64,000 nucleotides of DNA from Morchella semilibera (taxonomy: Eukaryota; Ascomycota; Pezizomycetes; Pezizales; Morchellaceae): assembly GCA_009192285.1 (NCBI GenBank), contig WBVU01000018.1:248001-312000 (forward strand), given 5' to 3'. Within the stretch, counting starts at the first letter, position 1. Every line of letters starts with the position of its first letter. Under the pieces are notes generated by a model. The model was given only the letters and a program-made list of their open reading frames with translations, had not been told where the DNA came from and ran no database searches. This document shows positions 1,581 to 19,081 of this stretch, in pieces. The position numbers and the translations under genes are program-made.

Positions 1581-1675
1581 GATTGCTCCTATTTGGTCCC
1601 CGTTCGAATATATTAATATTCCCTTAATAATAGATTAGTCACCTATCCTGAAAAAAGCTCCACAGGTACTCACCT

Positions 1676-2521
1676 TCAATGAATGCCCCCATTGCTCAAC
1701 GCTGCGTACATACAGTCCACGACAACCGAGTAATCATTCATCCATCTCTCTTTGGCCGGCACCATATTCGGGAACAGGACAGCAAACTCCTCTGTAGCGA
1801 GAAAAGATCTACCATCGTATCGAATCATCTGCCATTGGCTTCCTGTTGTAACGAATCCGTACACCTCGCCTCCACCATTATTATCTCTCGCATCTTTCAA
1901 TGCCAGCAGACACTGTTTCAACGCCTCTCCAGTAGTACCCTTCTTCGCTTCTATGATCAAGACAAACCTTTCTTCTCCCACCACAATGCGATCAATCACA
2001 ACGAATTCCTCTGTGCCCCCTGTCTCATTGTCTGTGGATATGATATCTTTCTCCCTCGCTAACCGTATCTCTTTGCGTCCCGTCCTGGATCTGAAATCGA
2101 AAAGAATTGGACTGATGATACCATAAACCAAGTCACTAACATTGGCTTCTTTGAAGTTCGCATTTGCCTCCGTAGGATAGCCTTCGATATCAAGATATTC
2201 CACTATGTTGTCGTACACCTTTTCCTTGGTCTTCAAGATGGCATCCCGGCCCTCGCCATCAGGACTATAGTTTTCGTTTGCCAACATTCTAGCAACCGGC
2301 ACCCCCCTGAGTTGATCGATCCAGAAGCCTAGTCTCTTCCCCGCTTCTGGGATGGTCATCTTTGAGTACGAGGTACTCCACTTCGCCTTTCGCTGCTCCT
2401 TCTGCTGCTTGGTATCGTTAGGTCCCAGATGGGGGACGAGGGTGGTGTGTATCGGACGCGAGTACACGGTGCGAGACCTAGGAAGAGCTTTGACCGTCTG
2501 GCGGCTGAGTTGTCTGAACAT
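1676..2521 (-). CDS. PD-(D/E)XK nuclease-like protein, paralogue A
   Basis: 281 residues, one exon. Residues 1-30 are rich in Arg, Ser and Leu with no acidic residue (begin MFRQLSRQTVKALPRSR), typical of a mitochondrial presequence. The core (about 100-250) has a helix-rich part, then Asp177, a strand, the EAK motif (Glu191-x-Lys193), and a helix with Gln203. That order (D...ExK...Q) fits the PD-(D/E)XK nuclease fold. Conserved YGFVTTGSQWQMIRYDG follows. I chose the ATG at 2521 because paralogues B and C start at the homologous MFRQL/MLRQL; an in-frame ATG at 2557 is not conserved in B. Downstream, AGGTGAGTAC right after the stop looks like a conserved splice donor. A TATA box lies ~97 bp upstream. 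Function unknown: the nuclease fold is my inference from motif spacing, and a non-catalytic role is possible. Confidence 0.75.
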   Translation of the reverse strand: MFRQLSRQTVKALPRSRTVYSRPIHTTLVPHLGPNDTKQQKEQRKAKWSTSYSKMTIPEAGKRLGFWIDQLRGVPVARMLANENYSPDGEGRDAILKTKEKVYDNIVEYLDIEGYPTEANANFKEANVSDLVYGIISPILFDFRSRTGRKEIRLAREKDIISTDNETGGTEEFVVIDRIVVGEERFVLIIEAKKGTTGEALKQCLLALKDARDNNGGGEVYGFVTTGSQWQMIRYDGRSFLATEEFAVLFPNMVPAKERWMNDYSVVVDCMYAALSNGGIH

Positions 2522-2599
2522 GATGCTGTAGCCCTCGAGGGATAGTGTCGAGGACATGGCGCTTCCTGGTCGGATTCCTGGTCGGATTCCTGGTCGGAA

Positions 2600-2780
2600 G
2601 ACGGGGGGACCACTCCCTATATACGTACCAGCGATCAGGCCGGGTAAGTAGTCCGGCGCCTACACTGGTGTCAAGGGTAAGGGTTCAATCCGAGGCTTGA
2701 ACGTACATCTGAGCATGGTCCCAAATGCCTTACTTATAAATGAAAGTACTCTACGAGTATTTCTTAGGCTGGTTCCTGAT
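2600..2780 (-). promoter_or_regulatory. Promoter block of gene A, shared with gene B
   Basis: On the minus strand a TATATAGGGAGTGGTCCCCCC block lies about 97 bp before the ATG. Gene B has TATATAGGGGGTGGTCCCCCC at 6146 with similar spacing. Both are followed by AGGAAGCGCCAT. Further upstream both carry ACCCTTACCCTTGACACC and a CGTTCAAGCC element. In A a 13-bp unit (TTCCTGGTCGGAT) is repeated three times at about 2563-2600. A partial copy of the distal part of this block, without the gene, lies at 17500-17690. Confidence 0.65.
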
Positions 2781-2790
2781 GTCAGAGAAC

Positions 2791-3045
2791 TGCCAGGGAA
2801 TCATATAGCCTTCGGTTCCTGGCAGTTCTCTTCTGGCACCAGTCTGTTACTGGTGCAGTTCTGGCGCTGGCGCTTGTCAGTAGTAGTGTGAGGGTCGCAC
2901 ACGCTCCCTTTTCTCATAATCCTACTACATACTATGGAATAAAGATACTTCGATATCTAGATTATCAAGATAAGATAAGACCAGGCAGTAAAAAAGTTGC
3001 AAATCAATTAATAATTAATTACATCTCGAAACCACAATCCCTCTT
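2791..3045. repeat. R1 repeat, right copy beside gene A
   Basis: Direct-repeat partner of 1321-1580. It carries the same blocks in the same order, with the central CTGGCGCTGGCGCTTG segment in the orientation also seen near 17765. It joins on its left to the distal promoter block of gene A. The unit promoter-gene-3' flank, bounded by R1, may have been the copied or mobilised piece. Confidence 0.7.
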
Positions 3046-3417
3046 GTGATGGTGACGGTCCAGCGCTGCCAGCCGTTCAGTCCGACTGCAGTCGACTATG
3101 CCAAGCAGGTAGTCCAAAAAGTAGGACGGACTATGGTGGACTGCAGTGTTTCAGCCAAGACAGTCCGTCCATCAGCAGGACGGGACTACGGACTATGGAC
3201 TGCATAAGTATACATTTTGGGTATAGTATGCCAACGGGGATGTCGTAAGTGGAGTGATATAGAACTGATGAGGTGTATAACAACTGCGGGGATTCTCCTG
3301 AATTTTATTTTTTAGAATTATTTCAAGAGCATCAGATTCACAGTAAGGTTAATACAAACAGAAACAATTTCACAAAAGCCATATATAAAAATATCATTCA
3401 ATGAATATATCTCCTGT
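3046..3417. other. Non-coding, AGTCC-rich stretch before hAT fragment
   Basis: Between 3060 and 3210 the words AGTCC and GGACT recur many times in both orientations, including GTCCGACTGCAGTCGACT. Such short bidirectional motifs resemble subterminal repeats of hAT elements and lie just upstream of a hAT N-terminus. No gene. Confidence 0.35.
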
Positions 3418-3893
3418 ATGGCAAACAGCTCAATTTATGAGCCATCGATTGCTAATACTGCACCGTCGGTAGCTAAGCCCCGATTAACCAGAGCCTCACA
3501 AGTTCCCGCTGCTTTTCAACAAAAACCAAAGGAAAGAACTAGTTGGGTTTGGAAACATGGTTCGGTTATTCAAAGTAGTTATCAGAATGGAGTTGTAAAA
3601 GATAGATGAAGATGTAATTTGTGTTAGATAAATATTGCCATGACCTTTGAAGTTTGATTATTAAATTAAATAATAGGTCCAAACCAAGCTACTGCCACCA
3701 ATTATCTGGATACAATAACCAAAAATTCTATTAACCATTTTGTTCGAGCCCATAGTTTTCATCAAAATAAAGAACTACGGGATTCTATTCCAAACATCGG
3801 CGGCGCAAGTCAAGTTTTGGGAGCGCAATTCAGTCAGCCGGCAATTAACAATCCCTTAATGGAACCAGTCAAAATGATTTTTAACAGCGACAT
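3418..3893 (+). pseudogene. hAT transposase N-terminal fragment with BED finger
   Basis: The frame from 3418 contains RTSWVWKHGSVIQ followed by a CxxC (CNLC) after an in-frame stop, which is the start of a BED-type zinc finger as found at hAT N-termini. After a short gap (~3630-3700), coding-like sequence continues (FVRAHSFHQNK..., PNIGGASQVLGAQ) to about 3890, where solo-LTR sequence cuts it. The catalytic domain is missing. The element is broken by the early stop and by the LTR insertion. Confidence 0.6.
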
Positions 3894-3895
3894 AT

Positions 3896-4150
3896 TGTGA
3901 CGGGGTAACCCGACGCAAAGAAGAAGATGACAATGATGACGCAGAAGGGCTCGAGGAGCACAGCCTAAGCGACGAGGGGACCGACGAAGACAAGGGTAAC
4001 ACCGGCGAAGGCAAAGGCAAGGGCAAAGGCACAAGAGCTGTCCAGTGTTCTTCCTATCTTCGTCGGTGTCCTCGTTATGCTGGCTGTGTTTCTCGAATTC
4101 TTCTGCATCATCATTGTTATCTTCTACTTTGTGTTAGGTTATTACGTCAC
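3896..4150. mobile_element. LTR1 fragments, one forward and one inverted
   Basis: 3896 to about 4035 matches the first ~140 bp of the LTR1 family (starts TGTGACGGGGTAACCCGACG). About 4047-4150 matches the same region in reverse complement. The pair is a head-to-head remnant of at least two LTR insertions. It is immediately followed by a further full-length LTR1, which inserted at the end of the inverted piece. Fossil, non-coding. Confidence 0.65.
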
Positions 4151-4876
4151 TGTAACGGAGTAGGTCGACGCAAAGAAGAAGATGACAATGATGACGCAGG
4201 GGAATTCGAGGAGCACAGCCTACGCAACGAAGAGACCGACGAAGACAGAGGCAACACCAGGCAGGCACAAGCACAGACACGGGCGAAGGCAAAAGCAAAT
4301 GCGAGGGCACAGAGGCACAAGGCAGGGAGAGTAAGGACCGGATGGACCTCAACGAGAACGATGAGAGGTACTTTGGGTTTTCTTCCTAAGAGGACAGAAT
4401 CTTGGATACGAAGACTATGGTTTCGAGAATAGGAATATATTCCTATGTATCAAGATAACAGGAAGACGATACAGAGAGAAAAGAAAGAAAGAACTAAGGA
4501 AAACATCTATCCCCGCTATTTAACACACCTCCTCCACTAGTCCGCTGTGACTTACACTTTCGCTTATAGAACCCCATAGAAACCTATCACTACCACACCT
4601 CGTAATCCTCCGCTTTTCTACACTACCAATCCATCACGCCATCGAACCTCCCAGAACTCAATGACGACAACCTCCACCTCGCACTCCTCACTCTCGCAAT
4701 CCTCCACACCATCTCCGCTTTTCTACATTACCAATCCATCACGCCATCGAACCTCTCAGAACTCAATGACGACAACATCCACCTCGCGCTCCCCACTCTC
4801 GCTTAACATTGCCCTAACAACCCCAATCATGCATCGCCTACCAAACTGTCGGAACAGATGCTAAGATGCTGGGACA
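4151..4876 (+). mobile_element. Solo LTR, family LTR1 (TSD GTCAC)
   Basis: Begins TGTAACGGAGTAG and ends GGGACA, with GTCAC directly before and after (4146-4150, 4877-4881), a 5-bp target duplication. At 726 bp it is longer than its 630-640 bp relatives because a ~107 bp block near 4620-4780 is tandemly duplicated. No retrotransposon coding region is present, so it is a solo LTR left by LTR-LTR recombination. The superfamily cannot be told from the LTR alone. Confidence 0.8.
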
Positions 4877-5165
4877 GTCACAGTAAAATAGCAGGCGTAG
4901 ACACTGGGGGTGCACACGGTGCGGATGACGATGCAACGTAATATCAAGGGGGCATTAGGGTATAACTCTGTTCCGCAGGGTGTGAGGTAATAACAGCAAT
5001 ACTCCATAGAAAGAGGAGTATGGGAGAAGTATCAGGATTAAGAGACAGTGATAGCCACTAGTGAAGTAGAGACTATGAGATATATTTATAAAGAAAATAC
5101 AGAAGATGTTCCGTGAAGAGAAAAGAAAAGAAAAGAAAATACAGAAGATGTTCCGTGAAGAGAAA
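4877..5165. other. Unassigned sequence with short tandem duplication
   Basis: No gene. The ~40 bp unit around AAATACAGAAGATGTTCCG is repeated at about 5095-5160, and the GAAAAGAAAAG tract continues beyond the MITE at 5166-5302, so the MITE inserted into this tract. Confidence 0.5.
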
Positions 5166-5302
5166 CATCAGCAAGACTTCATTTGTCTCCTGATGTCTCC
5201 TGAGCCTCATGAGACTCAAAAAATATCAAGGGGTATCAGGAGACTCTCAGGAGACCCAGGAGACTGTTGGGAGACTCCAGTCAGAAGTTGAGTTTGCTGA
5301 TG
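5166..5302 (-). mobile_element. MITE-1, 137 bp
   Basis: One of four copies in the window (others 11519, 15247, 16153). Ends are inverted CATCAGCAA. The interior is an imperfect palindrome built from GGAGACTC/GAGTCTCC words. This copy is in reverse orientation relative to the others and is flanked by AA on both sides. It has no coding capacity. Confidence 0.8.
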
Positions 5303-5830
5303 AAAGAAAAGAAAAGAAAATACAGAAGTAGGCACTGTTGCCTCCCTTATATACCCAACATTCCGTCGCCAAGCCTAACTCATACCCGTAGGTAATCCCA
5401 ACTTTTTGTTACCGTTTCACGTAACAGAAGCTTATAGAAACCGTCCTGACTCATCTCCACCTTCTAGCGTATAGTAATCTCATTCTTGCCAACCCCAATC
5501 CTTCCAGTCCTGTGAACCTAGTATATCCATGAAATTTAGGTTTTATCCCTTGTCTTCACTTTCCCTGCCCTGCTTTTAGGTCTTCGCCTTGGCCACACCG
5601 CCATTAGCCTCCTTTACTAGTCTTGGCTGTGCCTCTCGATCTCATCTGCGTCATCATCTCATGTGTCCTACAGGTAGTCTTCATTACTCCATCACAGGAT
5701 CATATACAATTACTGATCCTTTTACAGATCCCTGTACTCATCGGAAAGTCGTCAAATGCTGGAATGTATATGCCAATGCATATGCCAATGCATTCACCGA
5801 TGCATTACCTGACGTAGGGAGCTATATGAT
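5303..5830. other. Unassigned, with inverted LTR1 remnant
   Basis: About 5585-5685 resembles the start of LTR1 in reverse complement (GATGATGACGCAGATG and GAGGCACAGCC words). The rest is not recognised. A TGCCAATGCAT word recurs near 5768-5800. No gene. Confidence 0.4.
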
Positions 5831-6145
5831 CTAGCAGTTTTCTGGCACCAGGAACCTGCCTAAGAATTACGCAGTGGTTCAGTATTTATGTAAGGGATCC
5901 CCTGACACCGGTCTAAAATCTACGTTCAAGCCCCGTCGTAGGACCCTTACCCTTGACACCAACGCCACGAATCAGCCCTAGGTGCCACACGCCACTTTTG
6001 CCGCCAGGCTACCTACCGTTTGGATAAGACCGGTCTGTTCCTACGGGTTCACGGCATAAGCCATAGGAAAATGGTGTGGCTTACGCAAAAAGGGACTGGT
6101 CTTACCCAACGGACTTTTGCGGTACCCGGCCTTCTCGTGATAAGG
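5831..6145 (+). promoter_or_regulatory. Upstream block of gene B, related to R1 and gene A promoter
   Basis: Contains TCTGGCACCAGGAACCTGCC, ACGTTCAAGCC and ACCCTTACCCTTGACACC in the same order as the minus-strand upstream of gene A. An AT/GC-mixed stretch with GGTCTTAC words follows up to the TATA box at 6146. This is evidence that genes A and B were duplicated together with at least several hundred bp of 5' flank. Confidence 0.55.
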
Positions 6146-6151
6146 TATATA
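6146..6151 (+). promoter_or_regulatory. TATA box of gene B
   Basis: TATATAGGGGGTGGTCCCCCC lies about 107 bp before the ATG of gene B and matches the equivalent block upstream of gene A base for base over most of its length, followed in both by AGGAAGCGCCAT. Confidence 0.6.
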
Positions 6152-6257
6152 GGGGGTGGTCCCCCCCGCTCTCACACAGGAAGCGCCATCTCCTTTACAA
6201 CTTGAAAGGACTGGATACAGGCCCTAACCAGTAGCAACTCACCCTGACGAAAGGATC

Positions 6258-7091
6258 ATGTTGAGACAACTCCGCCGCCAGAAGGTCAGGGCTTTTCCTA
6301 GGCCTCGCTTTGTGTACTCACGTTTAGTACTCAGCACCCCCGTCCTTCACTCGCGGCCTAACAACACCGAGCAGCCAAAGAACCGGAAGCCCAAGTGGAC
6401 TACTCCTTACTCCAGCATGACCCAGGCAGACGCAGAGGAGAGGCTGGGCGTTAGACTTGGAGCACTCGAGGATGACGCCATTCCAGCGAGGGTGATGTTG
6501 TCCATGATTCCAGGGGAGGATGCCTTCAAGGAAACAAAGGAGACGGTTTACCGCAACATCGTGGACTATCTTGAGGTCGAAGGCTATCCTACGGAGTCGA
6601 GAGCAGATTTTAAAGCAGCCAACATTAGTGACTTGGTTTACGCTACCATTAGTCCTATAATCTCCGACTATAGACGTAAGACGAAACACAACCTACGCTT
6701 ACAGAGGGAGAAAGAAATCGTGTCTATGGACTTTGAGACAGGTGGTACGGAGGAATTCATTTTGATGGATCTCATCTCGGTGACGAAGGATAAGTTCGTC
6801 CTCGTGTTAGAGGCAAAGAGAACTTCTGTTGGAGAGGCGATGAAACAACTCTTGCTGGCAATGAAGGATGCGAGAGAAATGAACGCTGAAGGTACACTCT
6901 ACGGATTCACCACAACTGGAGATCTTTGGCAAATGGTCACATACGATGGTCAATTGTTTAAGGTTACTGAACAGTTCTTTGTACTTTTTCCGCGTATGGA
7001 TAAAGACAAAAGAAGATGGATGAAGGATTACTCTGTTCTGGTTGATTGCATGTATGCCGCATTGGCTGGTGCAGGCACCGTGAAGGATTGA
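6258..7091 (+). CDS. PD-(D/E)XK nuclease-like protein, paralogue B
   Basis: 277 residues, one exon, the most regular member of the family. Residues 1-35 are basic (MLRQLRRQKVRAFPRPR) and read as a mitochondrial presequence. In the core, Asp171, Glu185-Ala-Lys187 and Gln197 keep the D...ExK...Q order of PD-(D/E)XK folds. The block YGFTTTGDLWQMVTYDG and a C-terminal VDCMYAAL are shared with A and C. Similarity to A runs the full length (roughly half of residues identical by eye), but positions 35-95 are variable. The start is set by the conserved MxRQL. The stop TGA is followed within two bases by GTGAGTAC, a perfect splice donor. An intact frame in a decayed transposon island suggests recent origin or selection. 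Function not known. Confidence 0.8.
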   Translation: MLRQLRRQKVRAFPRPRFVYSRLVLSTPVLHSRPNNTEQPKNRKPKWTTPYSSMTQADAEERLGVRLGALEDDAIPARVMLSMIPGEDAFKETKETVYRNIVDYLEVEGYPTESRADFKAANISDLVYATISPIISDYRRKTKHNLRLQREKEIVSMDFETGGTEEFILMDLISVTKDKFVLVLEAKRTSVGEAMKQLLLAMKDAREMNAEGTLYGFTTTGDLWQMVTYDGQLFKVTEQFFVLFPRMDKDKRRWMKDYSVLVDCMYAALAGAGTVKD

Positions 7092-7093
7092 AG

Positions 7094-7141
7094 GTGAGTA
7101 CCTAATGGCGGATTTGTTTGTGGTGACTAATCTATTATTTA
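7094..7141 (+). other. Putative intron just after the stop of gene B
   Basis: GTGAGTACC begins two bases after the TGA. GACTAATC is a good branch site and ATTATTTAG an acceptor ~10 bases later, giving an intron of about 48 nt wholly in the 3' UTR. The same donor and branch words stand at the equivalent place in A and C. In C the frame reads into it because its stop is lost. Confidence 0.55.
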
Positions 7142-8173
7142 GGGGATAATCGGCCTGGGGGACGGGGGGTTCAAGTGGTGCGGGACCGTGGGAGTGGCGA
7201 TGGAGGGAGGCCTTCCCGCTACTGTGATTAGTAAGCCATTGTACAGCGGATAATCAATCGTTGGATGACCCAACCAGAACTTTGCCTGGAGGCGTGGAAT
7301 TGGTGGCGTTCATCCGATGACCTATCGCCCACCGCTATACGATAGTTTGATAGCCTTCCATCATCTAGATAAGTGTGACTACTCTTAGTATTTATTTCTG
7401 AAGAAGGGGGCGGGGCCTCTGTATAGTAGCGAAGCGCCAGCGGAGCGACTAGATACATGTAGGCACCACAGAGGATGTCTGGGGGGTGCCTAGAAATCTG
7501 CTAGGGTGCAGCAGGCACCTATATGGTTCCCTAGCAGGTTCCTGGCACCAGACACCGTGCTAAGATATACGCTTCAGCTGATATCATTTCTATGGGTATT
7601 GTCTCTACCAACTACTTTACCGCCGGATCGTATAAAAAGATCAGTCCGATATCAAGCCTCTATGATTTTATGACTGATATTATAGGTCAGGTCTTAATCA
7701 GACTATGATTTGCTAAAGCTGATATTTTGTGAAGATTATGGTATATGATAATGCCGATATAAAATTGATTTTATTCACTGAAAAATCTGGATACGCGGGT
7801 GGGCCGGTATTCACACTTGTTCTGCATAGGGAAATTACACAGATTAAATTCTTATTTATCTCACGATTTAATACTACATATATCTAAAAATTATTACTAC
7901 AACGGCTTGCCTACTTGCCCGCTTCATTGCATATTCTATATGGTACGCTACAGTATGGTACATTACGGTACAGTGCCTGATTCCGGCGCACTCGTTTAGA
8001 TTCGCTGGATTCATTGGATTGGGTGTTGAATTCGCTGGATTCGCTGGATTCGCTGGATTGGGTGCTGAATTCGCTGGATTGGGTGCCTAATTCACCGATT
8101 AGCTCATATCCTAATGATGATGATGATTAATTGGGAGGAGGGCGTAGATTCTTGTGGGGGAAAGGGTGTATGT
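7142..8173. other. Unassigned repeat-like spacer with minisatellite
   Basis: No supported gene. 7495-7560 holds an R1-like scrap (GGTTCCTGGCACCAGACACC). 8003-8095 is a short minisatellite of TTCGCTGGA and GGGTGCTGAA units. Confidence 0.5.
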
Positions 8174-8692
8174 TAGTCTCGTCCCCAGACCCCATCGATA
8201 TTTATTATTATTTATTGTTCAATACCGGAAGGGTCTGGTGTGCTTACCCAAAAAGTTTGTACCAGTCCTTTTTTCGGGAATACTAGCGCCGTTTTGAAGG
8301 CCGAAGGGCTGCCGGAGCTTTTTTACATACAAAAAATAAGGTTTTTTTAGTCTCTAGCGGAAGAATTAAGGTTTATTCTGACCCCAATATCACAATTCGG
8401 ACTTTTTTTAGTCTCTGACGGGAGAATTAAGGTTTATTCTGACCCCGATATCACAATTCGGACTTTAATATCACATTTTGTACTCATTTCGCACTCCGAT
8501 ATCACATTTCGACTCCGGTATCATATTTCAGACTCATTTTGCACTCCGGAATCATATTTCAGAGGAAAAGGAGAATGTCCGAACTTTTTCCTAAGGGGTG
8601 CCGGAAAGATAGTGCTCCAGACCCTACTGGTGTGGACTAATAAAAATACAAATATACTAACCACACCAAAATAGGGGATGGGCACGAGACTA
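8174..8692. mobile_element. MITE-2, long 519-bp copy
   Basis: Terminal inverted repeats TAGTCTCGTCCCCAGACCC and, at the right end on the other strand, TAGTCTCGTGCCCATCCCC. The copy at 40833-40979 shares both ends and the adjoining AATACC and CCACACCAAAATAGG words but is only 147 bp. The long copy carries an interior with a ~65 bp tandem duplication (AGAATTAAGGTTTATTCTGA, about 8340-8465) and a series of TATCACATTTCG units. No coding capacity. Confidence 0.65.
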
Positions 8693-8883
8693 GGTGTATG
8701 TACCCTCCCGAGTGTGTTATTTCCAGAGGGCTTGCTTACTAGGCGAGAGAGCGACTAGCGAGGTGCTAGTATCTGGCGAGGAGGGGGAAGGGGAGGGGAC
8801 TCGTAGGCTCTAGTCTCTGATATCTCTTGCTACTAACTACGTATACATGATAGGGAATGCTCAACCTACTCGCGCTGCCGGAT

Positions 8884-9521
8884 TGTGACGGAGTAACCCG
8901 ACGCAGAGAAGAAGATGACAATGATGACGCAGAGGGACTCGAGGAGTACAGTCTGCTTGACGAGGAGGCCGATGAAGACAGGGACAACACCGAGCAGGCA
9001 CAAGCACAGGCACCGGTGAAGACAAAGGCAAGGATGAGGGCACAAGGGCACAGGGCAGGGAGAGTGAGGACCGGATGGACCTCAACGAGAACGATGAGAG
9101 GTGCTATGGTTCTCCTCTTTGGAGGAGAAAATCTTGGGGACGTGAAACTATAGCTTTTGAAATGATAGGAGTACTAGTAGATTCCTATGTACCGAGATGA
9201 CAGGAAGACGAGACAAAGAGGAAAGAAAGAAAGAACCAAGGAAAACATCCATCCCCGCTATTTAACATATCTCCTCTACTAGTCCGCTATGACTCACACT
9301 TTTGCTCAGAGAACCTCATAGAAACCCATCGCTACCACACCCTGTAATCCTCCCCATCATCTCCGCTATTTTATATTATTAATCCATCACACCATCGAAC
9401 CTCCTACCTAATGACGACAGCCTCCACCTCGCACTCCCCACTCTCGCTTAACATTACCCTAACAACCACAACCGTATATCATCTACCGAACTGTCGGAAC
9501 AAACGCCAAGACGCCGGGACA
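8884..9521 (+). mobile_element. Solo LTR, family LTR1 (TSD CGGAT)
   Basis: 638 bp, starts TGTGACGGAGTAACCCGACG, ends CGCCGGGACA, with CGGAT on both sides (8879-8883 and 9522-9526). It is non-coding and a fossil. Full length and a perfect target duplication mark it as one of the younger insertions here. Confidence 0.85.
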
Positions 9522-9539
9522 CGGATTGAAGCCGCCCAG

Positions 9540-10210: not shown

Positions 10211-10780
10211 GTTCTATTCCTTCGTCTGTATCCGCGATTCACAACTTTTTGCCGAAGGACCGGCGCTGTGATATGCCAGATACTAACTTCAGTTGGGAGT
10301 GGGCAAAGCCCAATTGAGATCAGTGGAGCCACTAGAAAAATTCTCAGATTCACGGCATTAGCGAGGCTCTGAGTTGCGCGAGCCCTTTACTTTATTTTGC
10401 ATTGCGCAAACTCATTATTATAGATCTAGAGTATGATACAAGTTGACACACCGCTTGCATACAGGTTCTTGACATAGCGAGCACTAGTAAACTGTATATC
10501 TAACCCTACCACCTGGTCCCTCGGGATTGTTGAACAAAGTTGCGGTAGATGGATCTTTTGATAGGTATCGGCACATAACGCATAGCCGTTTGGATGTACT
10601 ATAAAGTTTGTGGTCACCAGGAGAAAGCCGTAAGGGAGATAGTTGATAATTTTTTCCAACATATCCAGCTTGTCGGCTAGCACTATTATTACCTAAAGGT
10701 TGAGCTCCTAAAAAAATTAGATTAATTTGAAAAAAAATAAGTAATCAATAGTTTACCAGGACAAAATCTCCCATTACTGA

Positions 10781-11376
10781 TATCACGGCGTATTACGGAG
10801 TTCGTAGGGAAGGAGGATATTTAGGAATGGAGTTCGAGTTGCGGTGTTTCTTTTGGGTTCTTGGAGTTTCTATGGGTTTCCGTTACACGATGTTATGAGT
10901 CATGATTGTGCAGGGATTAGGAGGAGTATATATACGTTGCTACGGAGCTTCCCTTTGTTCTTTTCTTTCTCTTTCTTTCCTTACGTGTTCTTCCTGTTAT
11001 CAACCCTACGGTTTAGTTTTGTTTTGTCTTGTGTCTTTAGTTCCGAATATACTACGTCATAACCATAGCCTCTGCCAAGACCCCCTTGGGTCTTTCATAG
11101 TATCTCGTCTCGCCTCGCCTCGCCCCGTTTCGTCTCGTCTCGTTTCGCCCCGCTCCGCCCCGCTTCATCTCGCCCATAGCCTATGACCGTAGTCCGTGTC
11201 GTCTACTGGTATCTTCGTCTCCACGTCTTCGTCAGAGAGGCCATCTGGACCCTCTGCCCCACAACCTTGCTTCTCGGTTAGGTTCCCTTGTTCTTGTCCC
11301 TCGCCTTCGTCCTCGTTCCTGTCTCGGTTGTGTACCTCGGCCCTCTTGTCTGTTGTCTCCGTGTTGCTCCGTAACA
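10781..11376 (-). mobile_element. Solo LTR, family LTR2 (TSD ACTGA)
   Basis: 596 bp, read on the minus strand from TGTTACGGAGCAACACGGAG to CGCCGTGATA. It is flanked by ACTGA on both sides (10776-10780, 11377-11381). It sits inside the C-terminal part of the piggyBac transposase and so is younger than it. It is rich in TCTCG/CCTCGCC pyrimidine runs. Solo, non-coding fossil; superfamily unknown. Confidence 0.75.
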
Positions 11377-11518
11377 ACTGACTAGTGGAGGGATAGAAGT
11401 AAAGTGTTGACGGATGGATGCTGTGTAACTAGGGTTGACTCGGTAAAATCCTTCCATTACTAGGTTCCATGCAAAACGTACCCGGAACAGGCCATGTTCT
11501 TTCCAGTATTTTTCAGTG

Positions 11519-11655
11519 CATCAGCAAACTCAACTTGTGACTGGAGTCTCCCAACAGTCTCCCAGGTCTCCTGAGAGTCTCCTGAGACCCCTGGATATTT
11601 TTTGAGTCTCCTGAGACTCATGAGACATCAGGAGACAAATGAAGTCTTGCTGATG
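11519..11655 (+). mobile_element. MITE-1, 137 bp, in piggyBac coding region
   Basis: Full-length copy with CATCAGCAA inverted ends, flanked by TG on both sides. It splits the piggyBac coding sequence between ...AREAIPNPPTT and EKYWKEH.... Near-identity with the copy at 15247 suggests recent activity of an unseen autonomous partner. Confidence 0.8.
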
Positions 11656-13317
11656 TGGTAGGAGGATTTGGTATTGCTTCTCTTGCAAGCAAAAAGAAAT
11701 TGACTATAGTTGTATCAAGTAACCAGAAAAATAAACAAAGCCAATTACGACAAGTACGCAATTGTGTCAGGTAGTAGCTGCGACGTTGATCAGCTATATC
11801 AACACCTCCCATATGATCATTGTATTTGACGGTCAACTTTGGAACCCTTAAGCTTCTAACATTGTCATTGCCCCATCCATCTCTTACCAGATCCCGATTT
11901 GCAACCGTTATTTATGGGCACCGATGGTTATGGAGAAGGTAATTACGGTGTTCAGGTGTGCACTTGTATGCAGTTGTCAAAAACCGTACTAGATTTTTGT
12001 CTTGCCATAAGACTGCAAGAATATCTTCACAAATAACACCAGATATTGTATTGTAAGCTAAATGAACCCGTTTTTTGTCCATTTTGAATTGATTTGGCCA
12101 ACCTGCACTATTTGGACATGCAGTACCACATGCGGAAATTCCATATCGGCGTAAAACGGAGAAGAGAGGTACATTGGAGAAGTAGTTATCACAAAATAAT
12201 GTGAATCTATTTTGAAGATAAGGTAACTGTGTGACAAGCTGTAAAACTGCTCGAGAAGTATGAGAAAGACGTAGTTGATCGGAGAGAAAAGAATGTAGAT
12301 CACTGAAAGAATCTACTCGTGAGGTGAACATGAATGCATAAGTATAACCCTTTTCGCAAAGAGCAAGCATTTTATAACACCTTAGAACCGGTTTAGATCG
12401 GATCATTACTGTATGACAAGATCTTCCTGTAAAGCATACCATCATCTCATCTACAGCTACATTGGTAGCAGGTAGAAAATATTTTTGGTAGCGGGTCTGA
12501 AGGTTGAAGGCTAAAGGCTGTAGCTTTTGAGACCATTGATTTCATTGAATGTAAGATTGTTGCCGGTTACGATTGGTACTGATGGTGGATGTTGTTGGTA
12601 ACGAGGATATATGGAGATATCTTTTGATCTGTTCAAAGCGGAACAGTGGCATGAATTGTGATATGTGATGGACCAGAAACTCATTGTTTTTAGACCAATA
12701 TTGAGGGACTTGTATCGCTTTGAAAACTCCCATATAAATCAAAAGACCAAATAATACCATTAATTCTCCAGCTGATGTTTTTCTCCATTTTCTTTTTCCT
12801 GGATTTCCGGTGCCTTTAGACTCGGTATAAGCATTTGTGTTTTCCGCTAATCGCTCAAATTCTTCTTCCGTAAAGAATAGCTTGAAAAATGACCCAGGAC
12901 AGATACGGGGTTGTCTTTGCTGTTGGGTGTCTTGAGGATGCAGTATTGCCGGGTTCGCGTAATGCTCTGCAAAATCATCTGGAAGCAGAAGCTTTCTTTG
13001 GTTTTCCGGCATGTGATGTTCAAATGGAGAAAATCTCGGTGGAGGTGGCAAGTCCTGTGCATTAGGAGCAATTGTCAAAGCATGGATTTCATTTCCATCA
13101 TCGTCCTCATCTCTAACCTCTTCAAAACCGTGTTCTTCATATTAGATACCTTCAACTTCCTCTTCAGAATCCTCATCCTGAGGATGTGGAAAAGACTCGG
13201 GCCTGAAAAATCCAAGAGGGACACCCCCTGGTGCGTCTGGAACTGGATCAAGAGAGTTTAAGTATTGCGAACTAGTATCCATTTGTAGTGTTTCCGGTTT
13301 CCGTTTCGTTTCGTTTC

Positions 13318-13948
13318 TGTAACGGAGTAGGCTGACGCAAAGAAGAAGATGACAATGATGACGCAGGAGAACTCGAGGAGCACAGTCTACGCAACGAGGA
13401 GACCGACGAAGACAGAGGCGACACCGGGCAGGCGCAAGCACAGGCACCGGCAAAGGCAAAGGCGAGGGCAAGATCACAGGGGCGCGAGACAGAGAGAGTG
13501 AGGACCGGATGGACCTCAATGAGAACGATGAGAGGTCCTTTGGGGTTTTCCTCTAAAGAGGACAGAATCTTGAGTACGAGACTATGGCTTGGTAATAGGA
13601 GTATATTCCTATGTATCGAGATAACAAGAAGACGAAACAGAGAGAAAAGAAAGAAAGAACTAAAGAAAACATCTATCCCCGCTATTTAACACACCACCGT
13701 CCCTAGTCTGCTATAACTCAAACTTTCACTGATAGAACCCCATAGAAACCTGTCGCTACCACACCTCGTAATCCTCCCCACCATCTCCGCTATTCTACAT
13801 TACCAATCCATCACGCCATCGAACCTCCCAGAACCCAATGACGACAACCTTCATCTCGCGCTCCCCACCCTCGCTTAACATTACCCTAACAACTACAACC
13901 ATACCTTGCCTACCGAATTGTTGGAACAGATGCCAAGACGCCGGGACA
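13318..13948 (+). mobile_element. Solo LTR, family LTR1
   Basis: 631 bp, starts TGTAACGGAGTAGGC, ends CCGGGACA. Left flank is a GTTTC microsatellite, right flank CTGAT, so no target duplication is visible. It separates the piggyBac start from the minus-strand coding-like stretch at 13949-16090. Fossil, non-coding. Confidence 0.75.
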
Positions 13949-15028
13949 CTGATGTGGTGTTGGGGTAGTGGTGCTTGAAGCGGATAATTTGTAACTACAA
14001 CAGGTGCTGTAGGTTGAACCGGTATTTGTTGTATGGGTGGTGATGAAAGTCTCTGTTTTTTGTAACCACTTGCAGTCCTTACTGGTATAAGTGAAACATT
14101 TTTAGGAAGTGAAGTTATTGTAGCTCGATTGTCGGTAATTCCTTGAACCCATTTCCGCATATCTTGAGCATGGATTTTGAAATAATCACTACCCATAAGG
14201 TAACAGCAATGTTCATAGTTGGGTCATTTTTTGTCCTCACACCGGAATTTACGTATTAGGCTATCCAAGTATTCACTTCCACGTTTAGGTAAATCTTACA
14301 GAATAATCGAAGAGTTTTGTAGATACGTTCTCTCCTGACCTCGAGCTGCTGCGTCCTCCAAAAGTACGGTAGTAGCTGTCTATATTCAAAGTTAATAACT
14401 TTCATTTATAATAGCTTGGATAGATAATATATAATACCTTACGGCCCACATGGCTTCCTAATTCACTGTCTCTAGTACCACTTGACATCGTTATTTTCTT
14501 TCTTCGAATTATAGGTGAAATAATAACACCAGCCATTTCGTCTTCATCCTCTTCATCATCAAGGATGGATTCGTCTATCTCTCCTTGAATACCAATTATG
14601 ACTTCCATCTCTACTCCAATTCCGGTTCTTTTGTTCTTCTGCAAATCTTCAATCTCCTCTTCCACTTCGCCTCATTTACGCCAACCACCATTCTCAGCCT
14701 CATACATATTAAGTCTAGATTTTAAAGGTGGATCTCTTGCTCTTTCTCCATCGGCCAAAACAGTAATCAATACCTCTCGTAAAACATGATTAGGGCCCCG
14801 TATTCTTTTGTCATCCCCATTGCGTTCTTGATGGAGGCTGAATATACAAAATTTGTTGACATTCCAGTATTTCGATAGATATCTCTTCCACCTTCAAACT
14901 TAATAATGCAGTTAACTGGAAAAGGAAAGGTCTTTAGTTTCGATATCGTACTTAGTTACGGATTAGGATTTGAGAGTGGAATCAAGTCTAAAGGCTCAAT
15001 TTCAAGTTCATCTATTACAATAGGATCG

Positions 15029-15670
15029 TATCACGGCGTGGAGCATGGTTTAGCGGTGTTGCGGGAAGAGGAATTAGTCAGGGGTTCTCTTATGTTCTTG
15101 GGGTTTCGGTGTCAGGGGTTCGGTTCGGAGATAGGATATCGGGTATAGGGGATAAGGTCGGACTCGGGTATAAAGGTCTTAGGGGATTCTATGGGGTTCC
15201 GTACAGGGATATTCGGGTTAGTCATTGGGTTCGGTGGTGTGATATACATCAGCAAACTCAACTTGTGACTGGAGTCTCCCAGCAGTCTCCCGGGTCTCCT
15301 GAGAGTCTCCTGAGACTCCTGGATATTTTTTGAGTCTCCTGAGGCTCAGGAGACATCAGGAGACAAATCAAGTCTTGCTGATGTATATATGGGTCTTGCC
15401 CTCACTTATAGATAGTTTCTTTCCTTTCCTCTTTACGCAACCTTCCTATCTCTAGGGGATTGTAGTCTCTCGTCGAGTATATTTTAGACTTCGAAGTTTC
15501 CTCATCCCGATCTTCTCCTGAGTGTCCATAGCCTCGTTCGTCTTTAGTCTTCCTCGTTTCTTGTTGCTTCGCCCTGCTCGATCTCGCTCGCATACTTTGG
15601 ACCTCGCCCCGTCTCGTTTCTATTGTGTACCTTGGCATCGTTGTCTATGACCTCGCTTCGCTCCGTGATA
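15029..15670 (-). mobile_element. Solo LTR, family LTR2, hosting a MITE-1
   Basis: Ends match the copy at 10781-11376 (TATCACGGCG at the left, CTCCGTGATA at the right). Without the 137-bp MITE-1 inside it is about 505 bp. Flanking target duplication not visible. It interrupts a minus-strand coding relic, giving the order relic, then LTR2, then MITE-1. Fossil. Confidence 0.65.
15247..15383 (+). mobile_element. MITE-1, 137 bp, inside LTR2
   Basis: Same ends and interior as the copy at 11519, flanked by TA on both sides (possibly TATA). Insertion inside a solo LTR places it among the youngest events in the island. Confidence 0.8.
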
Positions 15671-16152
15671 GTTTGGTAATAGAATTTGAAGGCTGTGGTG
15701 CAGCTGGTAGTATCGATTTGCGAGTATTGATTGTAACAGTTTTGGTATTTCTAGTTGATATGGGGCTCGAAGTAGGATCGCTCAGTATTTCGGGGTTTGC
15801 TTCTGGCTTGCTTCCTTTGTGACAATTATTCGAGGCCAAGACTAAATTTGAAGTTTGTAATGATTGATCTGATTCTATTACGCGACGAGTTCGTGTACGG
15901 ATACGTGATAGTAGCTTTCTCTTTCTGTTGACTGGTAGCATTTTTGTTGATAGATTGGATTTGAGGCTAGTATTTCCGGATTGTAGATTGCGAGTGAAGT
16001 TGGTTTGTTCACTCCATTGACTCAACTGCAAAGAAGAAAAAATTTCTTCCGAAAAACCCTGCGATTTTTCCTTGCCGCAAATATGCATCCTATTAGTAGT
16101 GCTGTACTCAATTGAGAGATTCTTCCTTGTTATTATTATATTCTATAACCAA

Positions 16153-16260
16153 CATCAGCAAACTCAACTTGTGACTGGAGTCTCCCAACAGTCTCCCGGG
16201 TCTCCTGAGAGTTTCCTGAGACTCAGGAGACATTAGGAGACAAATGAAGTCTTGCTGATG
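16153..16260 (+). mobile_element. MITE-1, 108-bp internally deleted copy
   Basis: Both CATCAGCAA ends are intact and AA flanks both sides. About 29 bp are missing from the centre (the CCTGGATATTTTTTGAGTC part). This shows that the ends, not the interior, are conserved. Confidence 0.75.
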
Positions 16261-16314
16261 AACAAAGTTACTCTCAATTAAATACTTTTAAATATTATCA
16301 TTGTACCCAATCTA

Positions 16315-17150
16315 TCCCTTGAACGGATGAAAGTTGTCAATTCGCGACCTGGACCGTGCACCACTTAGTAGGGGAGTTATATTGCTTGTTTGTGACGGAG
16401 TAACCCGACGCAAAGAAGAAAATGACAATGATGACGCAGAAGGACCCGAGAAGCACAGCCTCAGCGACGAGGAGACCGACGAAGACAAGGACAACACCGA
16501 GCAGGCACAAGCACAGGCACCGGTGAAGACAAAGGCAAGGACGAGGGCACAAGGGCACAGGGCAGGGAGAGTGAGGACCGGATGGACCTCAACGAGAACG
16601 ATGAGAGGTGCTATGGTTCTCCTCTTTGGAGGAGAAAATCTTGGGGACGTGAAACTATAGCTTTTGAAATGATAGTAGTACTAGTAGATTCCTATGTACC
16701 GAGATGACAGGAAGACGAGACAAAGAGAAAAGAAAGAAAGAACTAAGAAAAACATCTATCCCCGCTATTTAACACACCTCCTCCACTAGTCCGCTATGAC
16801 TCACACTTTCATTCATAGAACCCCATAGAAACCCGTCGCCACCACACCTCGTAATCCTCCCCACCATCTCCGCTATTCTACATTACCAATCCATCACGCC
16901 ATCTAACCTCATAGAACTCAATGACGACAACCTCCACCTCGCGCTCCCCTCCCTCGCTTAACATTACCCTTACCACCGCAACCATGTATCGCCTACCGAA
17001 CTGTCGGAGCAAACGCCGAGGCGCCGGGGTATTGTTATGGTAAATAGCAACAAACGAACCAAACAAGAATTTCCAACAATTACCACACGAGGTTACTATT
17101 AGCTGAAAGTAGTAGGTCGCGAATTTGACAAGTTTTATCTGTCCAAGGGA
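16315..17150. mobile_element. Mariner-type MITE split by a solo LTR
   Basis: Inverted ends of ~36 bp face each other: TCCCTTGAACGGATGAAAG at the left and, on the other strand, TCCCTTGGACAGATAAAAC at the right, both continuing TTGTCAAATTCGCGACCT with one difference. TA flanks both ends, the classic Tc1/mariner target duplication. Removing the LTR1 at 16391-17031 and its duplicated TTGTT leaves an element of ~190 bp with no coding capacity. Confidence 0.65.
16391..17031 (+). mobile_element. Solo LTR, family LTR1 (TSD TTGTT)
   Basis: 641 bp, starts TGTGACGGAGTAACCCGACG, flanked by TTGTT (16386-16390, 17032-17036). It lies inside the mariner-type MITE. Closest by eye to the copy at 8884, including the TTTGGAGGAGAAAATCTTGG block that differs in the other copies. 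Fossil. Confidence 0.85.
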
Positions 17151-17154
17151 TAGT

Positions 17155-17455
17155 TCTGTTCCCTATCAATAATCTATTGCAACACATCTACTCCCAATGT
17201 ATCACTTTTAGCTATTTACTATGTACCCTACTTATAGTCCTGTACCCTATCGATAGTCCATTGCAACCAGTCACACATGTATTCTATCGCTAGTTTATTG
17301 CTACCACCAACTCTCATATACTAGCCCGATGTACCCTATCTATAGTCCTGTACCCTACCGATAGTCCGTTGCCACACCCACTCCCACACACCCAACCCGA
17401 TGTACCCTATCTCTAGTCCTGTACCCTACCGATAGTCCGTTGCAACCACCACCTC
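17155..17455. repeat. Tandem repeat of GTACCCTATC...GATAGTCC units
   Basis: At least three units of about 65-75 bp built from TGTACCCTATC, ATAGTCCTGTACCCTACCG and ATAGTCCGTTGCAACCAC. The later units (17330-17450) are most regular. No coding capacity. Confidence 0.65.
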
Positions 17456-17489
17456 AAAGTCTTATTCCACAGCTTTTCGAAAGCGACTG

Positions 17490-18190
17490 CAGTACTAGCG
17501 ATCAGACCGGGTAAGCAGTCTGGCGCCCACAGTGGTGTGTGGCACCAGAGCCTTGTGTCACGTAGCGTTTGTGTCAAGGGTAAGGGTTCAACCCGAGGCT
17601 TGAACGTACCTACATTTGAGCATGGTGCCAAATGCCTTAGATACCTATAAATGAAAGTACTGTGAGTATTTCTTAGGCTGGTTCCTGGTGTCAGAGAACT
17701 GCCAGGAAATAATATAGCCTTCGGCTCCTGGCAGTTCTCTTCTGGCACCAGTCTGTTACTGGTGCAGTTCTGGCGCTGGCGCTTGTCAGTACTCTAGTGT
17801 GATGGTCGCTCACGCTCCCTATATACAGGGTTTCGCCCTCTCATAATCATACATGTACGGTCCAGGGGTCCCTAAAAGTGATGCAACGGCTTGGGATTAC
17901 ACTATTAGGTGAGGCCTTAGTAAATTCACAACCACCTCGACTTCTTCTATTTAGATATGATTGATGAACTCTTTATACTCTGTTTGCTGTATACGATATA
18001 TTGTTGCCTCATTAGGGCTACAATTGGGTCGCGCGTGGTTGAAATCGTGAGTGGTAAATCGAGTCGTTGCATCACTTTCTGACATCCCTGGGTACATACT
18101 ATAAAATAAAATACTTCGATATCTAGACCACCAAGATAAGATAAGACCAGGCAGCGAAAAATTCATTAATTATTAATTACACAATCCCGT
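17490..18190. repeat. Gene-less promoter block plus R1 copy, 3' side of gene C
   Basis: 17500-17690 matches the distal promoter block of gene A (GATCAGACCGGGTAAGCAGTC, GTGTCAAGGGTAAGGGTTCA, GGCTTGAACGTAC). 17690-17860 and 18100-18190 match R1, with a hAT-type MITE inserted between. It then joins the conserved 3' flank of gene C. The order promoter block - R1 - 3' flank - gene thus repeats what is seen to the right of gene A, implying a former tandem array or exchange between R1 copies. Confidence 0.6.
17863..18090. mobile_element. hAT-type MITE, 228 bp, in R1
   Basis: Inverted ends CAGGGGTCCCTAAAAGTGAT at the left and, on the other strand, CAGGGATGTCAGAAAGTGAT at the right, both continuing GCAACG. 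Comparison with the uninterrupted R1 at 2912-2940 shows it as an insertion between TCATAATC and ACATACTAT. An exact 8-bp duplication is not visible. Same family as the degenerate element at 102-277. Confidence 0.6.
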
Positions 18191-18250
18191 CGTTTTCTCC
18201 TATTCGGTCCCCTGTTCGAATGTATTATTATTCCCTTAATGATAGATTAG

Positions 18251-19081
18251 TCACCGTATCCTGAAAAAAGCTCCACCGTACTCACCTTCAATGAATTCCC
18301 CATTGCTCAACACTGTGTAAATGCAGTCCACAACAACCGAGTACTCATCCATCCATCTCCCTTTGGCCGTCCCCATATTCTGAAACAAGACAGTGAACTC
18401 CTCTGTAGCGAGGAAAGATGTACCATCGTATCGAATCATCTGCCATTGTCTTCCAGTTGTAATGAATCCGTATACATTGCCTCCACCATTATTATCTCTC
18501 GCATCTTTCATCGACAGCAGACACTGTCTCATGGCCTGTCCAAAAGAAGACCACTTCGCTTGTACGATGAGGACAAACCTTTCATCCGTTACCGAAATTA
18601 CGTTCATCATAACTTTTCCTCCTGTCTCACCGTCTGGAGAGATCTTCCCGCTCCATAAACGTAGACCATTGCGTCCAGTCTTGCATTTGAGATCGAAGAT
18701 AATAGTACTGATGATACTGTAAACCAAATGATTGATGTTTGCTTCTTTAAAATCCTCATCCGCCTCCGTAGGATACCCTCCGACGTCAAGATATTGCACT
18801 ATCCGGTCGTAAACCCTTTCTTTGGTCTTCAAGGTGGCTCCCGGGCCATCCCATTCAAGGCTTTCCAACATTCTATCAACCGGTACCTCTTTGAGTTCTC
18901 CAATTCTGAAGCCTAGTCGCTCCTGTGCCTCCGCCTGGGTCATCTTGGAATAAGAAGTTATCCAATTCGGCTTTCGGTTAGGCCCCGGATAGGGGATAGG
19001 AGTGTTATGTACCATACACGAGTACACAAAGCGAGGCCTAGGAAGAGCCTTAACCATCTGGCGACTAAGTTGTCTAAACAT
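18251..19081 (-). CDS. PD-(D/E)XK-like paralogue C, catalytic residues altered
   Basis: 276 residues, start at the conserved MFRQLSRQ. It is closer to A than to B (DARDNNGGGNVYGFITTG against A's DARDNNGGGEVYGFVTTG). The presequence-like N-terminus is kept. In the core the Asp is replaced by Asn160 and the Glu of the EAK motif by Gln174 (QAK), and a few residues before Asn160 are deleted, so a metal-dependent nuclease would be inactive. The normal stop is lost by a one-base shift near the end, and the frame runs 11 codons through the conserved splice-donor region. The shared TATA block is absent upstream: similarity to A stops at about 19090. Probably a decaying or re-purposed copy; an intact frame is nonetheless kept. 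Confidence 0.65.
   Translation of the reverse strand: MFRQLSRQMVKALPRPRFVYSCMVHNTPIPYPGPNRKPNWITSYSKMTQAEAQERLGFRIGELKEVPVDRMLESLEWDGPGATLKTKERVYDRIVQYLDVGGYPTEADEDFKEANINHLVYSIISTIIFDLKCKTGRNGLRLWSGKISPDGETGGKVMMNVISVTDERFVLIVQAKWSSFGQAMRQCLLSMKDARDNNGGGNVYGFITTGRQWQMIRYDGTSFLATEEFTVLFQNMGTAKGRWMDEYSVVVDCIYTVLSNGEFIEGEYGGAFFRIR

What the first reader, a model, noticed from the sequence alone, without database searches (positions are those of the whole stretch)
1676..19081. Three-gene family of PD-(D/E)XK-like, possibly mitochondrial proteins inside a transposon island
Genes A, B and C encode ~280-residue proteins with a conserved basic N-terminus (MxRQLxRQxVxAxPRxR), a D...EAK...Q motif series (A: Asp177, Glu191/Lys193, Gln203; B: Asp171, Glu185/Lys187, Gln197), and a strongly conserved YGFxTTGxxWQM block. 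Frames stay open while every neighbouring element is decayed. A nuclease fold exported to mitochondria and amplified with its own promoter and flanks could be a selfish or conflict system (mtDNA cutting, heteroplasmy control, defence) or a cargo gene. The fold and the targeting are inference; the paralogy and motifs are seen directly.
Basis: partly seen in the sequence, partly recalled or inferred. Interest (0 to 1): 0.78.

Follow-up and report, generated by a model that had tools for sequence, protein, structure and literature searches.

The report
Restriction-like nuclease gene family, probable fungus
A probable fungal chromosome carries three related intact genes for small restriction-enzyme-like proteins whose nearest relatives found here sit on cyanobacterial plasmids; two keep the cutting site behind a leader that looks mitochondrial, and the third has lost the cutting site but is still an open gene.

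Summary
Three intact paralogues are confirmed: L (1676-2521, -), R (6258-7091, +) and C (18251-19081, -), 52-62% identical. The PD-(D/E)XK guess is now well supported. PADLOC's PD_DExK model matches all three (E 3e-13, 2e-12, 4e-11). A profile of 13 cyanobacterial plasmid proteins aligns over 158 columns (E 6e-15; score 98 against at most 30 in 150 column shuffles). Pfam, NCBIfam and PDB sequence searches gave nothing significant.

C lacks that Glu and reads QxK, so it is very probably dead, yet its frame is open and, by a crude count, as constrained as L's.

L and R share upstream DNA; a gene-less upstream copy and repeated 3' flanks mark a broken head-to-tail array. dN/dS is 0.33-0.42. An acid-free, Arg-rich N-terminus fits mitochondrial import, untested. 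Best reading: nuclear genes for small, probably organelle-targeted nucleases of bacterial type. A toxin-antidote role is possible but unproven. Eukaryotic relatives could not be searched.

The parts
1676..2521 (-). The longer frame to 2557 uses an upstream ATG where R has ATC
6258..7091 (+).
18251..19081 (-). Gene C, 276 aa; first acid missing, ExK changed to QxK; probable pseudo-nuclease
2417..2521 (-). L: acid-free, Arg-rich N-terminal 35 residues (mitochondrial-leader-like)
6258..6362 (+). R: acid-free, Arg-rich N-terminal 35 residues
18977..19081 (-). C: acid-free N-terminal 35 residues
1796..2119 (-). L: stretch matching PADLOC PDLC01472 PD_DExK (residues 135-242)
   Evidence: E 3.2e-13
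6645..6968 (+). R: stretch matching PADLOC PDLC01472 PD_DExK (residues 130-237)
   Evidence: E 2.2e-12
18407..18577 (-). C: stretch matching PADLOC PDLC01472 PD_DExK (residues 169-225)
   Evidence: E 4.1e-11
2603..2909 (-). Upstream region of L, shared in pieces with R and with the copy at 17.5 kb; TATATAGGG (2623-2615) about 100 bp before the start codon
5821..6166 (+). Upstream region of R, homologous in pieces to that of L; TATATAGGG at 6146
17492..17820 (-). Upstream-region copy without a detectable gene (90% identical to L's over 252 columns): relic of a lost fourth unit (inference)
1465..1675 (-). 3' flank of L, shared with C
2926..3042 (-). Second copy of the 3' flank, upstream of L, 1464 bp from the first: remnant of a head-to-tail neighbour unit (inference)
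18093..18250 (-). 3' flank of C, shared with L
7092..7150 (+). Short shared 3' flank of R

Best explanation
The three genes are nuclear paralogues for small PD-(D/E)XK nuclease-fold proteins. L and R keep the conserved metal-binding-type residues (Glu166, Glu185, Lys187 and Gln197 in R numbering), so they most likely cut or trim nucleic acid with a divalent metal. Their basic, acid-free N-termini most likely take them into the mitochondrion, where they would act on mitochondrial DNA or on DNA or RNA that has entered it (turnover, quality control or defence). The family spread by head-to-tail duplication of a roughly 1.46-kb unit; transposons and deletions then broke the array, removed at least one gene, and left C, a copy without the two conserved acids and without the shared upstream DNA. 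Shown: the fold family by sequence profiles, the paralogy, the active-site status by homology, the shared upstream DNA of L and R, and the excess of silent over amino-acid changes. Inferred: catalysis, mitochondrial import, substrate, purpose and the order of events at the locus.
For: PADLOC PD_DExK E 3.2e-13 (L), 2.2e-12 (R), 4.1e-11 (C). hhalign of the three-protein core with 13 cyanobacterial proteins: probability 98.4, E 6e-15, score 98.4 over 158 columns, against a best of 29.9 in 150 column shuffles. Those 13 align in turn with HSDR_N_2 (E 2.1e-9), which also matches the window family weakly but above all 150 shuffles (31.1 against 23.4). The Glu and Lys of ExK, the Gln, a Gly and a Trp are identical in R, L and 12 of 12 relatives. 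AF2 core model of L: pLDDT 68, pTM 0.71, order helix, three strands, helix, strands around the motif. NG86 dN/dS 0.33-0.42; third codon positions differ more than second in 3 of 3 pairs (Fisher P 0.003, 4e-5, 1e-6). N-termini: first acid at residue 36-51; permutations reaching both charge criteria 6, 62 and 109 of 20000 (R, L, C). Of 26 ATG frames of 150 aa or more, the 2 that pass the leader test are R and the Tim50-like gene at 38778.
Against: No significant Pfam, NCBIfam or PDB sequence match. PHROGs: none for L, one for R (E 0.16), two for C (best E 0.015), all of unknown function. Foldseek found no PDB hit below 1e-3; the best was a mitoribosomal chain, not a nuclease (E 7e-3). L taken from its first ATG (2557) fails the leader test and C fails the charge count. 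The first acid is Glu, not Asp, in L and R. The Glu that 9 of 12 relatives carry early in the helix before the strands is set against Tyr128 by hhalign, so the window family differs there. dN/dS is pairwise and partly saturated (dS about 0.95 for R against L or C); in the L-C pair the core stretch gives 0.65.
Confidence: 0.5

Rival explanations
1. A selfish toxin-antidote or killer locus: L and R are toxic nucleases and C, a dead paralogue, is the antidote (for example by forming inactive heterodimers), so that losing the locus is punished. It would work like the SPOK spore killers, whose killing depends on a PD-(D/E)XK domain, but with the antidote as a separate gene.
For: C lost both conserved acids but kept an open frame and, by parsimony counts, as constrained a pattern as L (39 amino-acid: 25 silent changes in C, 46: 25 in L). 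Change in C is concentrated on acids: 7 of 16 acids shared by R and L changed (one of them Asp to Glu) against 18 of 129 other shared residues (Fisher P 0.008). SPOK killing needs a predicted PD-(D/E)XK domain (PMC6660238 and PMC9972908, passages read).
Against: C shares no upstream DNA with L and R. No kinase or resistance domain. No drive, expression or interaction data. Two in-frame deletions in C beside the active site also fit plain decay.
Confidence: 0.12
2. A relic family on the way out: useful earlier, now dispensable, with C already dead and units being lost to transposons.
For: An upstream copy stands without a gene (17492-17820), C lacks the shared upstream DNA and the active site, and the region holds transposon debris.
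Against: Three frames remain open after dS about 0.5-0.95 and dN/dS stays at 0.33-0.42.
Confidence: 0.2
3. Cargo or nuclease gene of a transposon, moved with its promoter by terminal repeats rather than by tandem duplication.
For: Gene L lies between 62-nt inverted arms 89% complementary (1404-1465 / 2848-2909), R between 19-nt inverted arms (5841-5859 / 7534-7552). A hairpin repeat in L's upstream DNA is related to sequence at 58180-58330, outside the island.
Against: The arms are parts of the upstream repeat and no such pair was found around C; the order 3' flank - gene - upstream - 3' flank at 1464-bp spacing is that of a tandem array. No transposase domain in the three proteins. Target-site duplications were not tested.
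Confidence: 0.1
4. A host-cell-entering effector of the Crinkler (CR-toxin) kind, with a REase-superfamily domain acting in another organism's cells.
For: REase-superfamily domains are common in Crinkler C-termini (PMC5289972, passages; PMC6131194, passages); multicopy genes in repeat-rich DNA.
Against: No LxLFLA motif and no Crinkler Pfam match (that PF20147 is in Pfam is from PMC9815663, passages). The N-terminus looks like a mitochondrial leader.
Confidence: 0.05
5. A non-catalytic mitochondrial structural protein that uses the nuclease fold as a scaffold, as the best Foldseek match (a mitoribosomal chain) might suggest.
For: Mitoribosomal chains take ranks 1-3 of the PDB Foldseek list for both models (best E 7e-3, probability 0.98).
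Against: TM-score 0.42, rmsd 9.4 A, 6% identity for the best; ExK and Gln conserved with the bacterial family.
Confidence: 0.03

Closest known systems
PADLOC PDLC01472 'PD_DExK' and the roughly 200-aa stand-alone cyanobacterial plasmid proteins it detects (e.g. WP_015364285.1, Anabaena cylindrica pANACY.02)
   Same: Same nuclease domain over 158 aligned columns; (D/E)...ExK...Q and YGxVTTGxxW-type motifs; stand-alone small proteins
   Different: Window proteins are eukaryotic, have an N-terminal extension of about 50 residues (the first 35 acid-free), a stretch of about 13 residues inserted before the first core helix and a longer C-terminus; first acid is Glu; 16-23% identity of L to 12 relatives
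HSDR_N_2 (PF13588) and HSDR_N (PF04313), nuclease domains of restriction enzymes
   Same: HSDR_N_2 aligns in register over ExK...Q...TxG; the cyanobacterial relatives match it at E 2.1e-9
   Different: Neither is listed by Pfam at E up to 10; no helicase motor, methylase or specificity partner seen; HSDR_N itself does not match
SPOK spore-killer proteins (Podospora)
   Same: Fungal proteins using a PD-(D/E)XK domain likened to type I restriction enzymes (PMC9972908, passages)
Crinkler (CRN) effectors with REase domains
   Same: REase-superfamily domain in expanded eukaryotic families (PMC5289972, passages)
   Different: No Crinkler header match or motif, no NTPase or kinase domain

Membership tests
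PDLC01472 PD_DExK (PD-(D/E)XK superfamily) | Significant profile match | tested here: met
   3 of 3 proteins, E 3e-13 to 4e-11; hhalign E 6e-15, 0 of 150 shuffles reach it
PDLC01472 PD_DExK (PD-(D/E)XK superfamily) | Metal-binding acid, then ExK, then Gln | tested here: met
   met in L and R (Glu in place of Asp at the first site, as in 1 of 12 relatives); not met in C
PDLC01472 PD_DExK (PD-(D/E)XK superfamily) | alpha-beta-beta-beta-alpha-beta core in the structure | tested here: inconclusive
   element order fits, pLDDT 68; Foldseek gave no hit below 1e-3
PDLC01472 PD_DExK (PD-(D/E)XK superfamily) | Nuclease activity | not testable with these tools
   needs a biochemical assay
HSDR_N / HSDR_N_2 (restriction subunits) | Pfam match over cut-off | tested here: not met
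   neither family listed at E up to 10
HSDR_N / HSDR_N_2 (restriction subunits) | Helicase motor and methylase partners | tested here: not met
   frames end after the domain; Pfam scans of all six frames of about 1-19.9 kb at E up to 0.01 list only two transposase domains
Crinkler (CRN) | LxLFLAK header / Crinkler domain | tested here: not met
SPOK spore killer | Nuclease plus kinase-like domain in one protein | tested here: not met
   no kinase domain in the 276-293 aa proteins
SPOK spore killer | Meiotic drive | not testable with these tools
   needs crosses
Mitochondrial matrix protein | Basic, acid-free amphipathic leader | tested here: inconclusive
   met by R and by L from Met 2521; C lacks acids but has only 5 Lys+Arg in 35; no trained targeting predictor at hand
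Transposon cargo | Terminal inverted repeats and target-site duplications around each copy | tested here: inconclusive
   inverted arms around L and R, none found around C; target duplications not tested

The most novel reading that the evidence does not exclude
A plasmid-borne bacterial defence-type nuclease was taken up by a fungal lineage, given a mitochondrial leader, and amplified into a locus of active nucleases plus a dead paralogue that acts as their antidote: a nuclear, mitochondrion-directed toxin-antidote (or mtDNA-policing) system.
Probability: 0.08. Interest if true: 0.85.

Novelty: new variant of a known kind. Interest (0 to 1): 0.45.

Why it matters
It links a eukaryotic multigene family to a little-characterised group of small PD-(D/E)XK proteins, found among the plasmid records only in cyanobacteria (24 of 24 records) and, in 7 of 14 loci looked at, beside or within one gene of CRISPR, DISARM or Uma2 genes. 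If the leader works, it would be a restriction-type nuclease sent to mitochondria, with a natural dead paralogue as a built-in control, which would make questions about mtDNA turnover or nuclear-mitochondrial conflict directly testable in a simple system.

Tried and rejected
Pfam scan of the three proteins to E 10: only chance-level hits (DUF1292 0.03 for L, Cbm74 0.092 for C, none for R). NCBIfam: none at E up to 1. PHROGs: none for L, 1 for R (E 0.16), 2 for C (best 0.015), all of unknown function. PDB sequences: none for R at E 10; profile A3 gave mS76 at E 0.17 and adenylate kinase at 1.1. Relatives in viral contigs: 0 confirmed of 2 stretches and 0 of 81; in genome contigs 0 of 40. tblastn of R against phages: none at E up to 1.

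The first AF2 job (full R) had pLDDT 47, too low for its Foldseek list to count (mitoribosomal chains first, with a Cas4-family and Wolbachia CidB entries lower down). The core model of L is better but still gave no hit below 1e-3 (PDB, viral). The top viral hit is a Pandoravirus protein with a DUF5898 domain, which the one paper found places in the kinase clan (one passage), so the similarity may lie outside that domain; not pursued.

Other PD-(D/E)XK families as the nearest kin: HSDR_N score 17.1, Mrr 21.4, SduA 12.7, against 31.1 for HSDR_N_2 and 98.4 for the cyanobacterial set. HSDR_N lay within its shuffles (one of 150 reached 31.8). A negative-control family (PF01076) gave one locus only and was not used. 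One search read minus-strand loci in the wrong strand; redone, from which the figures come. L028 (below cut-off) was left out of the HSDR_N_2 set (18 of 19 loci used); Mrr used the 16 loci given of 33 places listed. L101 (short annotated frames) was left out of the cyanobacterial profile (13 of 14 loci), and L093 (96% identical to L092) also from A4 (12).

I also dropped my own idea that Asp125 (His in C) is the helix acid of the family: hhalign sets the relatives' Glu against Tyr128 instead.

Literature: the titles and abstract starts listed by searches (no paper), 77, 109 and 110 did not deal with this family. Papers were read only as passages (PMC5289972, PMC6131194, PMC9815663, PMC9758233, PMC6660238, PMC9972908). 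Zhang et al. 2016 (PMC4857004) is not held, so whether it describes the family is unknown.

Full report
What is there. Three long open frames lie at 1676-2557 (-), 6258-7091 (+) and 18251-19081 (-). They are 52-62% identical in protein, and no further copy was found in the window. L's first ATG (2557) corresponds to ATC in R, and the similarity of L to C and R starts just before the Met at 2521, so I take 2521 as the start of L (281 aa). The window is eukaryotic: it holds a Tim50-like gene (NIF domain), a Cdc48 gene broken over three frames with an intron-like GTAAGT...CTAAC...CAG stretch, porphobilinogen deaminase, an eIF2B-type subunit and an Mpv17 relative. 'Probably fungal' rests on Cdc48, whose best PDB match is 6chs (865 bits, against 801 for the next), which I recall as a filamentous fungus. 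The species is unknown and no whole genome is held.

Fold. Pfam and NCBIfam give nothing significant. PADLOC's PD_DExK model matches L, R and C at E 3.2e-13, 2.2e-12 and 4.1e-11. tblastn of R against 72,556 plasmid records at E up to 1 gave 2 weak hits, both cyanobacterial (E 0.02 and 0.09); L at E up to 10 gave 8 records, all 8 cyanobacterial (best E 0.03). The Anabaena protein found this way has relatives at E up to 1e-3 in 24 plasmid records, all 24 cyanobacterial, and itself matches the PADLOC model at 6e-52. A profile of 13 such proteins aligns with the core of L, R and C over 158 columns: probability 98.4, E 6e-15, score 98.4; the best of 150 column-shuffled versions scored 29.9. Each window protein alone reaches probability 96-97. 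The cyanobacterial profile matches HSDR_N_2 (E 2.1e-9). The window profile also matches HSDR_N_2 above all 150 shuffles (31.1 against 23.4), though at a probability of only 36; of 23 window frames scored singly, R and L come first (29.6, 25.1) and C fourth (16.8), below a kinase frame (17.9). The same protocol scores accepted relatives within the superfamily between 13.7 and 53.4. The PADLOC model is rare in the one other phylum sampled, 1 of 150 genomes at E up to 1e-5, and absent from the 14 control genomes, one of which is the cyanobacterium Synechococcus elongatus (control list seen); so it is not in every cyanobacterium.

Structure. The core of L modelled with the three-sequence alignment reached pLDDT 68 and pTM 0.71 (the other four models 38-47), with helices 39-60 and 74-95, strands 101-110, 119-130, 133-139, helix 142-162 and strands 168-173 and 177-183. 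Foldseek gave no match below 1e-3 in PDB or BFVD; the best PDB match was a mitoribosomal chain (E 7e-3), the best viral match a Pandoravirus DUF5898 protein (E 1.6e-3). The structure neither proves nor refutes the fold; the sequence profiles carry the case.

Active site. In alignment A4 (columns) the first acid is Asp in 11 and Glu in 1 of 12 cyanobacterial proteins, and Glu in R (166) and L (172). C lacks three residues there, has no acid left in that strand, and has Gln for the Glu of ExK; Lys and Gln stay. Nine of 12 relatives have a Glu early in the helix before the strands (2 Gln, 1 Lys, read by eye); hhalign sets it against Tyr128 of the window family, so that acid is not kept here. Of 16 acids shared by R and L, 7 changed in C (one to another acid), against 18 of 129 other shared residues.

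Selection. NG86 dN/dS is 0.345 (R-L), 0.332 (R-C) and 0.421 (L-C), with dS 0.94, 0.96 and 0.51; by part it runs from 0.06 (a saturated stretch) to 0.65, the latter in the L-C core. Third positions differ more than second in all three pairs. With R as outgroup, C shows 39 amino-acid and 25 silent changes and L 46 and 25, so C is not looser than L by this crude count. Simulated unconstrained frames rarely stay open at the distances seen.

Leader. The first acid stands at 38 (R), 36 (L) and 51 (C); Lys+Arg in the first 35 are 9, 6 and 5, with one Lys each; best helical moments in the first 30 residues are 0.46-0.53, against 0.53 for the Tim50-like leader. Permuting each protein reached both criteria in 6, 62 and 109 of 20000. 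The stretch is conserved at dN/dS 0.31-0.54. No trained targeting predictor was at hand.

Anatomy of the locus. L and C share 1465-2528 with 18096-19088 (75%). L and R share upstream pieces (2666-2809 with 5821-5961; 2603-2646 with 6123-6166), including TATATAGGG 102 and 112 bp before the start codon. A copy of L's upstream region, 90% identical over 252 columns, stands at 17571-17820 without a detectable gene, and a second copy of L's 3' flank at 2929-3042 lies 1464 bp from the first. This order, 3' flank - gene - upstream - 3' flank, is that of a head-to-tail array that later lost parts. The 519 bases upstream of C resemble none of these. L's upstream DNA holds a hairpin with a 14-bp stem, related to sequences at 7.4-7.6 kb and 58.2-58.3 kb, and inverted arms flank L and R, so a transposon-like origin of part of the upstream DNA is not excluded.

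Surroundings of the relatives. Of 14 cyanobacterial loci fetched (from the records), 4 have an annotated CRISPR I-D or DISARM gene next to the relative or one gene away (L100, L102, L104, L105) and 4 a neighbouring Uma2 endonuclease (L097, L098, L099, L104), together 7 of 14; the other 7 show none of these in the short stretch fetched. This suggests, but does not prove, a defence role there.

Conclusion. My confidence in the fold family is about 0.95, in catalysis by L and R about 0.65, in mitochondrial location about 0.6.

Noticed in passing
window 2784-2850, 17693-17760, 1324-1378, 7484-7560, 58180-58330: A hairpin repeat (14-bp stem, 20-nt loop, then a 7-bp stem in the best copies) recurs in the upstream DNA of L and of the relic and in related form elsewhere, once far outside the island.
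   Followed up: partly
window 11699-12901 (-): Broken piggyBac-type transposase (DDE_Tnp_1_7, E 1.2e-50 with stops read as X), one frame with in-frame stops.
   Followed up: partly
window 3894-4876, 8883-9526, 13318-13958, 16390-17041: Four copies (the first in pieces) of a roughly 640-bp repeat, 81-91% identical; one lies upstream of the piggyBac remnant, and a 138-bp repeat (11519, 15247, 16153, inverted 5165) lies at its other side.
   Followed up: no
window 472-891 (+): C-terminal dimerisation domain of a hAT transposase (E 7e-14).
   Followed up: no
window 19956-22001 (-): Open 681-aa frame at the island's edge without Pfam or PADLOC match.
   Followed up: no
L092, L093, L095-L106: Cyanobacterial plasmid family of about 200-aa PD-(D/E)XK proteins; 7 of 14 fetched loci have a CRISPR I-D, DISARM or Uma2 gene within one gene; only 1 of 14 relatives was annotated as anything but hypothetical.
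   Followed up: partly
models m3a2d59f4d308 and mbdaac91eb273: Both structure models rank mitoribosomal chains first in PDB, with weak scores.
   Followed up: no
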